This document shows, piece by piece, positions 11,228-44,071 of a stretch of 58,389 bases of DNA. This stretch comes from Psychromarinibacter sediminicola (lineage in GTDB: Bacteria > Pseudomonadota > Alphaproteobacteria > Rhodobacterales > Rhodobacteraceae). A program made the translations under genes and the position numbers. The stretch spans positions 1 through 58,389 of the forward strand of contig NZ_JARGYC010000028.1 in NCBI RefSeq assembly GCF_029168335.1, in the 5' to 3' direction. The notes beneath the pieces were generated by a model, which saw only the letters and a program-made list of their open reading frames with translations, was not told the origin of the DNA and ran no database searches. How positions within the stretch are numbered: the first letter of the stretch is position 1; each line of letters starts with the position of its first letter.

Positions 11228-11284
11228 CCTGTTAGCGGTATCTGCAACAGGATCAACGACTTGCACCCCCGTCCAACCTCGGAC
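11228..11284 (-). repeat. Dispersed 57-nt element, copy A
   Basis: Read on the minus strand it begins GTCCGAGGTTGGAC-GGGGG 2 bases after the dctP TAA and ends GATACCGCTAACAGG. It aligns without gaps to the elements at 20181-20237 and 43744-43800. In this copy ATCCTGTT and AACAGGAT form an 8-bp stem around the GATACCGCT loop. It lies between dctP and dctQ and may affect their relative expression, or serve as a DNA site. Confidence 0.8.
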
Positions 11285-11286
11285 GC

Positions 11287-12297
11287 TTACTCGCCCAGCG
11301 CGTTGATCTCTTCCAGCACGCCCTCGGGCCAGGACTCGGCGAACCGGCTGCCCTGGTACTGTTCCTGCACGTGGCTGCGGAACGCCGCCCGGTCGGGCTC
11401 GTAGATCTCCAGCCCCTCTTCCTCCAGGAAGGAGACCAGCTCCGCCTCAAGCTCCAGCTGCTTCGCCCGCGCGCTGTCGGCGGCGGCCACGGCGGCCTCG
11501 GAGACGGCCTGCTGCTGCTCTTCGCTCAGCCCGTCCCAGACCTCCTTGGAGAACGCGATATAGTTCAGGTCCACCAGATGCGCGGTCAGCGCGATCTGAC
11601 AGGTCACCTCGTAGAACTTCGCGTCGACCACGGTCGGCAGCGGGTTGTCCTGCCCGTCGACCGAGCCGGTCTGCAGCGCGGTATAGACCTCGGTGAAGGC
11701 CATCGGCGTCGGGTTCGCGCCCAGCGCCTCGCCCAGGAACTGCCAGGCGTCGGTGCCCGGCATCCGCAGGTTCACGCCCGCCAGATCCTCGGGGGTCTGC
11801 ACGTCCAGCTCGTCGCGGCACTGCCGCAGGTTCACGTGCCGCTTGCCCAGATACATCACGGCAAGGAGCTTCACGCCCAGCTCGTCCTCGACCTTCTGCT
11901 TGAACGGATCCATCAGCGCGTCGTTGAACACGGCCACCTGATGCTCGGCCGACTGGTGGACGTAGCCGGTGGCGAAGATCGAGAATTCCGGGAAGTACTG
12001 CGCCAGCTCCTGCGCCGAGGCGATGGACATCTCCAGATCGCCCGAGGCGATCGCCTCCAGCTCGGAACCCTGCGCGATCAGCGAGCCGTTGTAATGCGGC
12101 TCGTAGGTGGCGAATTCCGCCACGGCCGGCGCGAACACCTCTTCCAGCGCCACCGAGCGCTGGTCGGTCTCGGACGCGGGCGTGGACATCCGCAGGGTCA
12201 CCATCTCCTCGTGCGAGGCGCCGAAGGCCGCCCCGGCGGTCATCAGCGCCACGGTCGCGGCGGACATCGCCAGGCGGCGGGTCAATCTCAGGGTCAT
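11287..12297 (-). CDS. dctP: TRAP transporter substrate-binding protein DctP
   Basis: A 336-residue periplasmic binding protein. A Sec signal peptide covers about residues 1-26 (basic start, then MSAATVALMTAGAAFGA). The family motif GVNLRMPGTDAWQ (ligand-carboxylate Arg) is followed by PTPMAFTEVYTALQTGSVDGQDNP. It captures a carboxylate ligand for DctQM. It begins 49 bases after the GntR gene in the same direction. The 57-nt repeat follows its stop immediately. The ligand cannot be predicted with confidence. Confidence 0.94.
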   Translation of the reverse strand: MTLRLTRRLAMSAATVALMTAGAAFGASHEEMVTLRMSTPASETDQRSVALEEVFAPAVAEFATYEPHYNGSLIAQGSELEAIASGDLEMSIASAQELAQYFPEFSIFATGYVHQSAEHQVAVFNDALMDPFKQKVEDELGVKLLAVMYLGKRHVNLRQCRDELDVQTPEDLAGVNLRMPGTDAWQFLGEALGANPTPMAFTEVYTALQTGSVDGQDNPLPTVVDAKFYEVTCQIALTAHLVDLNYIAFSKEVWDGLSEEQQQAVSEAAVAAADSARAKQLELEAELVSFLEEEGLEIYEPDRAAFRSHVQEQYQGSRFAESWPEGVLEEINALGE

Positions 12298-18820: not shown

Positions 18821-19045
18821 CGTTCCGGCTCCCAATACTGTACCTAAGGTTAGGTTTCGACGCGAATCGTGGCGGGATTTGGCCCGAAAGCGCACCTTTC
18901 TTCGAAATTCGCGAGAGTTCCGAGCGGTCTTCGCCCGTTCAGATTGTGCGGCCCGGCCGCGCGGCCGATCCTGTGCGCTGCCCCGCGGCGGGGCTTGCCG
19001 CGCCCCGGGGGCTCTGCTTTCATCGCCGGACCAAGGAGGGGCGGG

Positions 19046-20176
19046 ATGGCGCGGAGTCCGAGTTTCACCATCGGAATCGAGGAGGAGTACCTGCTCGTCG
19101 ACCGCGAGACGCTCGCGCTGTCCGATGCCCCGCAGGCGCTGATGGATCAGTGCACCGAGGCGCTGGGCGAACAGGTCTCGCCGGAGTTCCTGCGCTGTCA
19201 GGTGGAGATCGGGACCGGCGTCTGCCGCACGATCGACGAGGCCCGCACCGACCTGAAGCGGCTGCGCGAGACGGTGGCCGAGCTGGCGGGGCGGCACGGG
19301 CTGGCGCCGCTGGCGGTCTCCTGCCACCCCACGGCCCGCTGGCGCGACCAGCATCACACCGACAAGGAACGCTACAACGTGCTGGAGCACGACCTGGCCG
19401 GCGTGGCGCGGCGGCTGTTGATCTCGGGGATGCACGTGCATGTCGGGATCGAGGACGAGGACCTGCGCATCGACCTGATGAGCCAGGCCTCCTATTTCCT
19501 GCCGCACATGCTGGCGCTCAGCTGTTCCTCGCCGTTCTGGCAGGGGCAGGATACCGGCCTGTCGAGCTATCGGCTGACGATCTTCGACAACCTGCCCCGC
19601 ACCGGGCTGCCGCCGGTCTTCCATGCCTGGGCCGAATACCAGCGCTCGCTGGACGCGATCGTGCGGACCGGGGCCATCGAGGACGGAAGCAAGGTGTGGT
19701 GGGACCTGCGGCCCTCGGCGCGCTTTCCGACGGTGGAGGTGCGGATCTGCGACAACTCGCCGAGGCTGGAGCATGCGCTGACCGTCGCGGCGCTGTTCCA
19801 GGCGACGATGCGGATGCTGTGGCGGCTGAGGATGCGGAACCAGCGCTGGCGGGTCTACGACCGGTTCCTGGTGGGCGAGAACCGCTGGCGGGCGCAGCGC
19901 TACGGCATGGCCGAGGGGCTGATCGACTTCGGGCGGGGCGAGGTTCTGCCCTATGCCCAGCTGATCGAGGAATGGATCGAGCTGGTGGCCGAGGATGCCG
20001 AGGCCTTGGGCTGCATGGCCGAGGTCGCGGCGGCGCGGGACATCGTGGAGAGCGGCAACGGCGCCGACCGGCAGCGGGCGATCCGGGCCGGAGAGCTGGA
20101 GGTCTCGGGCGACGAGGACAAGGCGATGGCGGCGGTGATCCGGGCGATGATGGACGAGTTTACGGCCGATCTTTAG
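19046..20176 (+). CDS. YbdK-type carboxylate-amine ligase (glutamate-cysteine ligase family 2)
   Basis: A 376-residue enzyme. It has the family start [13 protein letters not shown] (GxEEE metal/ATP motif), the [11 protein letters not shown] motif near residue 130 and [20 protein letters not shown] near residue 225. Members ligate an amino acid through a carboxylate; E. coli YbdK has weak glutamate-cysteine ligase activity. AAGGAGG precedes ATG 19046. It stands alone between the valine genes, and the dispersed 57-nt element begins 4 bases after its stop. The physiological substrate is unknown. Confidence 0.88.
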
Positions 20177-20180
20177 GGGT

Positions 20181-20237
20181 GTCCGAGGTTGGACAGGGGG
20201 TTAAGTCCCTGGAGTCGTTGGCGATACCGCTAACAGG
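20181..20237 (+). repeat. Dispersed 57-nt element, copy B
   Basis: It starts GTCCGAGGTTGGAC-AGGGG 4 bases after the TAG of the ligase gene and ends GATACCGCTAACAGG. It aligns gap-free with copies A and C and lies in the sense of the preceding gene. The following 213 bases up to the acyl-CoA dehydrogenase hold no gene and probably the promoter of that operon. Confidence 0.85.
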
Positions 20238-20450
20238 AGACTGCGGACGCGCACTGCACGACACCGGGTCAGCCGTGGGACATTTCCACCTGCATCGCGC
20301 GGCGGAAGGCCGCGGCGCGCCGCGCGCGGCCGGCGGACACCGTCTTCGGCCGCTCCGCTCTCATACCTTGCGCATCGCCGCTCCGCGCCCCTTGCATTTC
20401 GCCGCCGCCTGGCGGAAACCGGTCCGGTATCCGGCTTTGGGAGGAGCCCC

Positions 20451-43171: not shown

Positions 43172-43735
43172 ATGTCGGCACTAAACCTGAAGCAGGGCCT
43201 TTCGAAGCATTCGGCCTATGACCTGCGCGATCCGCACATGGAGGCGCAGGAGCGGCACACGCTGGCCGTGGTGGTGGACAACGAGGCCGGGGTGCTGGCG
43301 CGCGTCATCGGGCTGTTCTCGGGGCGCGGCTATAATATCGAAAGCCTCACGGTGGCCGAGACGGACCATACCGGGCATGTCAGCCGGATCACCATCGTGA
43401 CGACGGGCACGCCCTCGGTGATCGACCAGATCAAGGCGCAGCTCGGCCGGATCGTGCCGGTCCACGAGGTCCACGACCTGACGGTCGAGGGGCCGGCGGT
43501 GGAGCGGGAGCTGGCGCTGTTCAAGGTGGCCGGCACCGGCAACGACCGGATCGAGGCGCTGCGGCTGGCGGAGATCTTCCGGGCGAACGTGGTCGACTCG
43601 ACGCTGGAGAGCTTCGTGTTCGAGATCACGGGGACGCCGCAGAAGGTAGATGCCTTCGCCGACCTGATGCGGCCCCTGGGGATGATCGAGATGGCCCGGA
43701 CGGGCGTCGCGGCGCTGGCGCGCGGGGCGGAGTGA
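43172..43735 (+). CDS. ilvN: Acetolactate synthase small (regulatory) subunit
   Basis: A 187-residue regulatory subunit with an N-terminal ACT domain (RHTLAVVVDNEAGVLARVIGLF then GRGYNIESLTVAETD, from about residue 28) that binds valine for feedback inhibition. An ALS_ss C-terminal domain follows (VERELALFKVAG, EIFRANVVDSTLESFVFEITG). An N-terminal extension of about 25 residues precedes the ACT domain. The 108-base spacer after ilvB contains the short GAGTATTTTGGCAAGATGAAG motif. The dispersed 57-nt element starts 8 bases after its stop. Confidence 0.96.
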   Translation: MSALNLKQGLSKHSAYDLRDPHMEAQERHTLAVVVDNEAGVLARVIGLFSGRGYNIESLTVAETDHTGHVSRITIVTTGTPSVIDQIKAQLGRIVPVHEVHDLTVEGPAVERELALFKVAGTGNDRIEALRLAEIFRANVVDSTLESFVFEITGTPQKVDAFADLMRPLGMIEMARTGVAALARGAE

Positions 43736-43743
43736 GCCGTAGT

Positions 43744-43817
43744 GTCCGAGGTTGGACAGGGGGCCAAGGCGCTGATATCGTTATAGATAGCGGTAACTGT
43801 CCGGGTTTGGACGGGGG
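43744..43817 (+). repeat. Dispersed 57-nt element, copy C, with a partial second head
   Basis: It begins GTCCGAGGTTGGAC-AGGGG and reaches GATAGCGGTAAC at 43797, gap-free against copies A and B. A second head-like segment GTCCGGGTTTGGACGGGGG follows directly at 43799-43817. It lies in the sense of ilvN, 8 bases after its stop. Confidence 0.8.
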
Positions 43818-43862
43818 AGCGGCGCTACGTCCTTGGCTTTGCCGGATAGGGGCCCCGGTCGA

Positions 43863-44071
43863 GCGGAACGCCGTGCAGCGCCGACCCGCCGGGGCGCGGT
43901 CGAGCTTTGCGATGCCGGAGACATAAGCATGTACGTCGGACTCTTTGCACCGTCCTCGCCGGAAGCGCCGCGCCGGGGGGGCGGGTCTCTCGGGCATTTC
44001 GAAACGAATTGCCCTGACGACAGGCGATTGCAGGGCAATCGCCGAGAGGCGGCGCTGCACGGCGTTCCGCC
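43863..44071. repeat. 21-bp perfect inverted repeat flanking about 167 bp
   Basis: The 21 bases at 43863-43883 (starting GCGGAACGCCGTGCAGC) are the exact reverse complement of 44051-44071. Inside, near the right end, is the hairpin GGCGATTGC-agg-GCAATCGCC. No gene is supported between ilvN (43735) and 44138. The unit could be a decayed mobile element, a MITE-like repeat or a structured RNA. Confidence 0.75.

What the first reader, a model, noticed from the sequence alone, without database searches (positions are those of the whole stretch)
20181..20237. A dispersed 57-nt element, three gap-free copies, always just after a stop codon
Copies at 11228-11284 (minus), 20181-20237 (plus) and 43744-43800 (plus) have exactly equal length between a conserved head (GTCCGAGGTTGGAC then RGGGG) and a conserved tail (GATASCGSTAAC), with AAG and TCG/TTG islands at fixed positions between. 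In all three the head starts 2, 4 or 8 nt after a stop codon (dctP, the YbdK-like ligase gene, ilvN) in the sense of that gene. The head can form GTCC-gaggtt-GGAC. The tail can form a second stem whose GTT/AAC closing pairs persist while outer pairs vary. The fixed length and placement suggest an RNA 3' element, or a small mobile repeat that targets gene ends. The tail also fits a LacI-family operator pattern (TGWTASCGSTAWCA), an alternative DNA-level reading. I know of no named family with this head.
Basis: partly seen in the sequence, partly recalled or inferred. Interest (0 to 1): 0.85.

Follow-up and report, generated by a model that had tools for sequence, protein, structure and literature searches.

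The report
Dialect repeat hugging bacterial gene ends
A short DNA repeat that matched no known family in the searches made here sits about ninety times in one bacterium, mostly right behind stop codons; a few related bacteria carry lineage-specific versions, which suggests a spreading element read by a protein not yet identified.

Summary
The three window copies belong to a family of about 94 copies in this genome. Head plus 5 nt has 78 matches at up to 3 mismatches; the reversed control has 1. Of 394 family genomes searched with a general pattern, 7 have 4-78 matches, 15 have 1 and 372 none. Congener G002 has 58. A palindromic head (GTCC-N6-GGAC) precedes a shared box YAAS-NNN-YTG; the head varies by lineage, though several genomes share one head type.

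Of 74 own copies, 56 follow a same-strand gene and 47 start 1-20 nt after its stop, against 42% and 4% for random intergenic points. Two congeners lack the element at 20 of 20 orthologous gene ends. Close neighbours face head to head in two genomes, not in the low-copy ones.

Best reading: a REP-like, spreading DNA repeat that co-evolves with an unknown DNA-binding or mobilising protein. Only the head has support as an RNA hairpin; the LacI-operator idea is not supported. It fails tested features of the known REP classes. My paper searches found no description.

The parts
11228..11284 (-). copy 1 of the element: head GTCCGAGGTTGGAC, middle box CAAGTCGTTG, tail GATACCGCTAAC; 2 nt after the dctP stop
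20181..20237 (+). copy 2 of the element; 4 nt after the stop of the YbdK-type ligase gene
43744..43800 (+). copy 3 of the element; 8 nt after the ilvN stop; an element lies behind ilvN in congener G002 too (L169)
43799..43812 (+). second, degenerate head box GTCCGGGTTTGGAC at +55 of copy 3
11287..12297 (-). dctP, TRAP transporter solute-binding protein; host gene of copy 1
18869..20176 (+). YbdK/GCS2-type carboxylate-amine ligase gene; host gene of copy 2 (start uncertain: 18869 or 19046)
43172..43735 (+). ilvN, acetolactate synthase small subunit; host gene of copy 3
43820..44070 (.). separate palindromic MITE-like repeat directly behind copy 3 (inner palindrome GCGGAACGCCGTGCAGCGCCG on both sides); bounds approximate

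Best explanation
The element is a 60-80 bp dispersed repeat of the general REP kind, acting as DNA. It is a row of dyad boxes: the head GTCC-N6-GGAC, the box CAR-N4-YTG, and in some genera GTTAGCGCTAAC (GATAGCGSTAAC in the window's genome), in part of the copies followed by further GTCC or GGAC boxes. One unidentified sequence-specific protein, a recombinase/transposase or a host factor that the repeat exploits, binds this row. Copies multiply and settle at the edges of transcription units, head against the stop codon. When the protein's specificity shifts in a lineage, the working copies shift with it, which gives the dialects. Shown: copy number, lineage heads, covarying head, placement, gene ends without the element in congeners, recurring boxes, neighbour orientation. 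Inferred: that a protein reads it, that copies move, and that the dialect follows the protein.
For: High copy number with clean controls. Patchy spread: among 394 family genomes the pattern has 4-78 matches in 7, one match in 15, none in 372. G003 and G004 show no element at 10 of 10 and 10 of 10 orthologous gene ends (read; model R1 finds nothing at E<=1 in those 20 stretches while it finds two positive controls and the two known relics). G002 copies fall into two linked subfamilies (columns 40/50/54), as expected of copying from masters. Heads differ between lineages; on 24 head types two pairs change on both sides (22 cells against 10.1 shuffled; sliding destroys it; near-identical first run). 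The four outer pairs were fixed by the search pattern and say nothing. The covarying inner pair (columns 6-9) would close a 2-nt loop in RNA, so it fits a DNA dyad better. Further GTCC or GGAC half-boxes recur at set distances: GGAC at +63/64 in 42 of 43 G002 copies, at +52 in 14 of 20 G327 and 8 of 20 G069 copies; own GTCC at -10, +55, +66, +76. Spacer positions vary freely beside strictly kept boxes. Placement is like that described for REPs (PMC3733652, sections 6, 14, 15 read).
Against: No mobilising gene was found: Y1_Tnp (PF01797) is absent from G000-G004, G141, G069 and G247 (G327 and G362 not searched), and the stretches between seven close element pairs hold long ordinary open frames, no transposase noticed (by eye, no family search). 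12 of 43 G002 copies lie at the same gene, side and orientation as own copies, and the hslU end carries one in four genomes of three genera; that looks like shared ancestry or a function at fixed sites. The dialect rule is not strict: GTCCCCATGGGGAC is shared by G002, G068, G327 and G397, and G362 mixes ten head types in 20 copies. G068 lacks the recurring GGAC boxes (1 of 26 copies). No target duplication or insertion junction was seen (not sought systematically). Elements of close pairs are not more alike than others (p 0.34). Stop adjacency is weaker in G069 (7 of 20 at 1-20 nt), G327 (8 of 20) and G141 (3 of 9) than in G002 (25 of 43) and G068 (15 of 26).
Confidence: 0.5

Rival explanations
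1. Host boundary sites: an oriented chromosomal element, read by a clade-specific architectural protein (gyrase-, IHF- or SMC-like use), that marks the edges of transcription units. Close pairs bracket a unit head to head.
For: Own neighbours within 10 kb: 12 head-head, 1 head-tail, 0 tail-tail; none of 20,000 orientation shuffles reaches 12. G002 within 20 kb: 9, 2, 0 (p 0.0001) (the distance limits were chosen after seeing the data). For four of eight own pairs both flanking genes and an inner gene were found in G003, in the same order and orientation, so those pairs did not arise by inversion. Sites are partly shared across genera.
Against: The neighbour rule is not seen in low-copy genomes: G327, G141 and G397 have no head-head pair under 30 kb, G069 none under 20 kb; G069 and G397 each have one head-tail pair under 10 kb. 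372 of 394 family genomes have no match to the pattern. Two congeners live without the element at all 20 gene ends examined.
Confidence: 0.25
2. RNA 3' element: a 3'UTR hairpin just behind the stop codon that protects mRNA ends, assists termination or binds an RNA-binding protein.
For: 47 of 74 own copies start 1-20 nt after a same-strand stop. The six-pair head stem pairs in 98.8% of cells in 70 own copies, with R-U and Y-R changes at pairs 4-9 and -1/14, and keeps its pairs across 24 head types. The free NNN would be the loop of a second hairpin (seen in the L086 fold).
Against: Folding z-scores of the three window copies are -0.3, -0.9 and -1.3 (of three copies from other genomes, L086 is -1.1, L213 -2.0, L201 -4.9). 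No compensatory pairs beyond the head. 17 of 74 copies have an opposite-strand gene upstream. The inner head pair covaries although RNA could not form it.
Confidence: 0.17
3. Operators of a LacI-family regulator.
For: The tail matches TGWTASCGSTAWCA at 1-2 mismatches in the three copies, against 0.3 matches expected in the window.
Against: It covers 12 of about 60 conserved positions, lies mostly behind genes rather than before them, and is missing in G327 and G141 copies and in 19 of 20 G069 copies that keep head and middle box.
Confidence: 0.03

Closest known systems
REP sequences, GTAG class with RAYT transposases (abstracts of PMC2817692 and PMC3733652, plus sections 6, 14, 15 of the latter)
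   Same: Short palindromic repeats, high copy, often species-specific, said to co-evolve with a trans factor, near gene ends and often supplying stop codons
   Different: No GTAG tag; 60-80 bp with several different dyads; no Y1_Tnp gene in the two genomes with most copies, G000 and G002
CGTC REPs of alphaproteobacteria (PMC3733652: abstract, sections 6, 14, 15 read)
   Same: Mostly alphaproteobacterial; the tag CGTC/TGTC resembles the bases at the head start; no dedicated transposase known; gene-end placement; head-head arrangement common
   Different: There the tag is unpaired, the 8-9 bp stem almost always begins with AT, most tails fit CCA, and most dimer partners are 20-100 bp apart; here GTCC is itself in the dyad, there is no AT start or CCA tail, the body is long, and head-head partners are kilobases apart
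BIMEs (abstract of PMC2817692; 3'-end placement and gyrase/IHF binding are recalled)
   Same: Mosaic of protein-binding repeats between genes
   Different: Single polar element, not REPs in alternating orientation; protein binding untested
REP sequences as hot spots for insertion sequences (PMC1525189, abstract read)
   Same: A MITE-like repeat lies at a near-fixed distance behind 16 of 74 copies
   Different: A repeat without a transposase gene of its own in the stretches seen

Membership tests
GTAG REP / RAYT system | GTAG (or similar) unpaired tag next to the palindrome | tested here: not met
   Own -4..-1 is RRGY; other genomes mostly have GC, GT or AT before GTCC
GTAG REP / RAYT system | cognate RAYT (Y1_Tnp) gene in the genome | tested here: not met
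   PF01797 absent in 8 of 11 genomes searched (G000-G004, G141, G069, G247); one match each in G068, G130, G102; G327 and G362 not searched
CGTC REP | unpaired CGTC/TGTC tag, 8-9 bp stem starting with AT, CCA tail, 20-40 bp unit | tested here: not met
   GTCC pairs with GGAC; no AT start or CCA tail; conserved body of about 60 bp (definition)
CGTC REP | gene-end placement in unidirectional and convergent gaps | tested here: met
   Over 198 copies of ten genomes: convergent 61, divergent 12, codirectional 52 sense and 32 antisense, 41 with a neighbour missing
MITE | terminal inverted repeats and target duplication | tested here: inconclusive
   The only inverted repeats seen are the boxes themselves; no alignable empty site with a junction was available
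LacI-family operator | operator conserved upstream of regulated genes | tested here: not met
   Tail missing in G327, G141 and 19 of 20 G069 copies; placement mostly behind genes
Known RNA family | match to an Rfam model | tested here: not met
   Window at gathering score: only a tRNA; 12 of 76 own loci at E<=1: none

The most novel reading that the evidence does not exclude
An oriented, lineage-dialect boundary system of the bacterial chromosome: about 60-90 polar sites in each of the two rich genomes, mostly abutting a transcription unit with the head, close pairs bracketing units head to head and nearly never otherwise within 10-20 kb, all read by one unknown protein whose specificity drags the sites along when it drifts.
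Probability: 0.2. Interest if true: 0.85.

Novelty: new variant of a known kind. Interest (0 to 1): 0.62.

Why it matters
It would be a REP-like family with lineage dialects and no recognised mobiliser, in a group of bacteria where my paper searches found no such description. Change of a head palindrome at dozens of sites, some at the same gene in different genera, is a natural experiment for finding the protein that reads it. The head-to-head rule over kilobases is not a property I know of for REPs (recall; the section read puts most dimer partners 20-100 bp apart) and can be tested with topology or contact maps.

Tried and rejected
Rejected. (1) Chance: control pattern and model. (2) LacI operator. 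(3) Known Rfam RNA. (4) RAYT-driven REP, for the genomes searched. (5) Close pairs made by replicative inversion or local copying: gene order kept where it could be checked, partners not alike. (6) Close pairs as ends of a transposon with its transposase between: long ordinary frames between seven pairs, no transposase noticed by eye. (7) Phage or plasmid origin: no hit in viral contigs for one pattern; plasmid searches with copy 2 and with copy 3 plus the MITE gave nothing. (8) Integron attC: considered from recall only, not tested by tool.

Led nowhere: mutual information for RNA helices; paper searches.

Weak points. Gene calls around the elements are from my own codon-score finder, not curated. 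A recount showed that the own-genome set used held 3 spurious rows and lacked L021, L024 and L051; own counts here are therefore, which uses all 74 copies, while mutual information and shared sites still rest on the older set. The stop-adjacency null uses only the window's gaps, elements included. The family search by model scored 17 candidates per genome, so I rely on the pattern count, which misses copies without an intact GTCC-N6-GGAC. Head types for the pair count were collected by hand; three own single-copy variants without intact outer pairs and two heads of G130 were left out.

Full report
What is there. The three window copies are as described. Searching the window's genome (G000) for the head plus five bases at up to 3 mismatches gives 78 sites against 1 for the reversed pattern. 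I dropped two as chance and two as second heads inside copies, which leaves 74. A sequence-only model built from these finds 93 sites at E<=3e-9 and one more at a contig end; 150 of 1387 candidates were scored. The consensus, from the 53 of 74 copies whose tail my rule placed at +54, is RRGY-GTCCRAGGTTGGAC-RGGGG-KNY-AAG-NNN-YTG-AWWTYG-TTATAGATAGCGSTAAC-WG. Four copies (L021, L024, L042, L051) have insertions or a deletion in the core.

Family and dialects. A general pattern, GTCC-N6-GGAC-N7-YAAS-NNN-YTG, was run over 394 genomes of the bacterial family, nearly one per genus. It gave G000 78, G068 28, G141 24, G327 20, G362 20, G069 19 and G247 4; 15 genomes had 1 and 372 had 0; the reversed control gave 0-2 per genome. 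Congener G002, not in that sample, has 58; two further genomes reached through loci have 15 (G397) and 17 (G398). Names come by matching contig lengths: G002 is Pseudoruegeria sp. HB172150, G327 Frigidibacter sp. ROC022, G141 Seohaeicola zhoushanensis KCTC 42650. The record titles printed also name Amylibacter, Pseudooceanicola and an unnamed Rhodobacteraceae bacterium; that scan stopped at its limit. Heads vary by lineage: GTCCRAGGTTGGAC in 70 of 74 own copies; GTCCCCATGGGGAC in 42 of 43 G002, 23 of 26 G068 and 20 of 20 G327 copies; GTCCACRYGTGGAC in 20 of 20 G069; GTCCYAGCTRGGAC in 9 of 9 G141 copies read. So several genera share one type, and G362 mixes ten head types in 20 copies. The tail GATAGCGSTAAC or GTTAGCGCWAAC is kept in G000, G002 and most G068 copies but not in G327, G141 and 19 of 20 G069 copies.

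Structure. On 24 head types collected by hand, 94.4% of cells pair against 82.2% in shuffles; two pairs change on both sides (22 cells against 10.1) and sliding destroys this. The four outer pairs were fixed by the search pattern and carry no information. The inner covarying pair encloses only two bases, which an RNA hairpin could not close, so I favour a DNA dyad; the outer five pairs fit RNA as well. Within genomes no distant columns covary as base pairs (3 of its 73 own rows were spurious), and the three window copies do not fold better than shuffles (z -0.3, -0.9, -1.3). For the RNA reading speak the degeneracies at pairs -1/14 and 4/9, mostly those that G-U wobble allows, and one G069 copy that folds very well (z -4.9). 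Extra half-boxes recur: own GTCC at -10 (10 of 74), +55 (16), +66 (11), +76 (16); GGAC at +63/64 in 42 of 43 G002, +52 in 14 of 20 G327 and 8 of 20 G069 copies, but in 1 of 26 G068 copies. Their roughly helical spacing is my reading; I did not test it. The spacer NNN varies even among otherwise near-identical G002 copies.

Placement. With my own gene finder, 56 of 74 own copies have a same-strand gene upstream; 23 start 1-4 nt and 47 start 1-20 nt after its stop, and the commonest distance is 2 nt (13 copies), where the element's RR overlaps the stop codon. Random points in the window's gaps give 42%, 0.9% and 3.9%. At 1-20 nt lie 25 of 43 copies in G002, 15 of 26 in G068, 7 of 20 in G069, 8 of 20 in G327 and 3 of 9 in G141. 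Over 198 copies of ten genomes, 61 lie in convergent and 12 in divergent gaps, 52 in codirectional gaps in sense and 32 antisense; 41 have a neighbour missing.

Neighbours. Close copies face each other head to head. Own (94 sites), within 10 kb: 12 head-head, 1 head-tail, 0 tail-tail; within 20 kb: 15, 1, 1. G002 (58 sites) within 10 kb: 4, 0, 0; within 20 kb: 9, 2, 0. None of 20,000 orientation shuffles reaches the own value; for G002 p is 0.0049 and 0.0001. The limits were chosen after seeing the data. The low-copy genomes do not show it: in G327, G141 and G397 no head-head pair lies under 30 kb and in G069 none under 20 kb, and G069 and G397 have one head-tail pair each under 10 kb. For eight own pairs I looked for flanking and inner genes in G003. 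Four pairs (C46, C248, C234b, C77) had both flanks and an inner gene, in the same order and orientation; two (C43, C256) had one flank and an inner gene, also collinear; in C207 one flank and one inner gene lie together and the other inner gene elsewhere; C255 could not be judged. So the checked pairs arose by separate gains, not by inversion.

Gain, loss and sharing. At orthologous ends of ten genes in each of G003 and G004 I saw no element, and model R1 finds nothing at E<=1 in these 20 stretches while it finds two own copies and both relics in the same run. One of the 20, the G004 counterpart of the L003 gene, is a weak match (59% identity). G003 keeps one headless relic behind dctP, the place of window copy 1; G004 has one headless body elsewhere. 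Yet 12 of 43 G002 copies lie at the same gene, side and orientation as an own copy, including ilvN (window copy 3), and 4 of 26 G068 copies do; a thirteenth G002 case at L053 is ambiguous. The hslU end (gene named from its sequence, by recall) carries one in G000, G002, G068 and G141, four genomes of three genera. Either many sites are old and were rewritten to the local dialect, or a limited set of gene ends is hit again and again. I cannot decide between these; both need a factor that reads the head.

Comparison with known kinds. Gene-end placement, stop-codon overlap, species specificity and missing transposase recall the CGTC REPs of alphaproteobacteria (PMC3733652: abstract, passages and sections 6, 14, 15). 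The unpaired tag, AT-led stem and CCA tail are not met. RAYT-type genes are missing in the two genomes with most copies. I therefore call it a new variant of the dispersed-repeat kind, not a member of a named REP class. Searches for five head or tail sequences, and for repeats in Rhodobacter, Roseobacter, Rhodobacteraceae or Rhodobacterales, found no description; the one sequence hit was an unrelated paper on mammalian genes, seen only in the listing. A 2025 survey (PMC12306157, word search of its main text only) has no mention of Rhodobacter, Roseobacter, Paracoccus or Pseudoruegeria.

Verdict. Real, abundant in a few genera, patchy and lineage-specific; most likely a REP-like spreading DNA element with an unidentified partner protein (0.5), possibly a chromosomal boundary element (0.25), less likely an RNA 3' element (0.17).

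Noticed in passing
window 43820-44070; also a degenerate one near 20245-20330; 16 of 74 own copies: A MITE-like palindromic repeat (ends CGCTACACGACAC / GTGTCGTGTAGCG in L003, inner GCGGAACGCCGTGCAGCGCCG) lies directly behind the element at a near-fixed distance; 69 matches of the inner 21-mer in the genome at up to 3 mismatches (control 4), 2-10 in four congeners (control 2-8).
   Followed up: partly
L032, L033, L034, L038, L040, L049, L057, L064 and others, about -10 relative to the head: A partial extra head (mostly GTCCGAGGGT) directly before the element; GTCC stands at -10 in 10 of 74 own copies, so that the stop-to-head distance becomes 11-18 nt in several.
   Followed up: partly
L201 and other G069 copies: In G069 the tail region holds GTGGAC at +50 (8 of 20) and GTTAACC at +66 (9 of 20); L201 folds far better than shuffles (z -4.9), unlike the window copies.
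   Followed up: no
L080 (G003, behind dctP) and L079 (G004): Headless body relics in congeners that otherwise lack the family; the G003 one stands at the place of window copy 1.
   Followed up: partly
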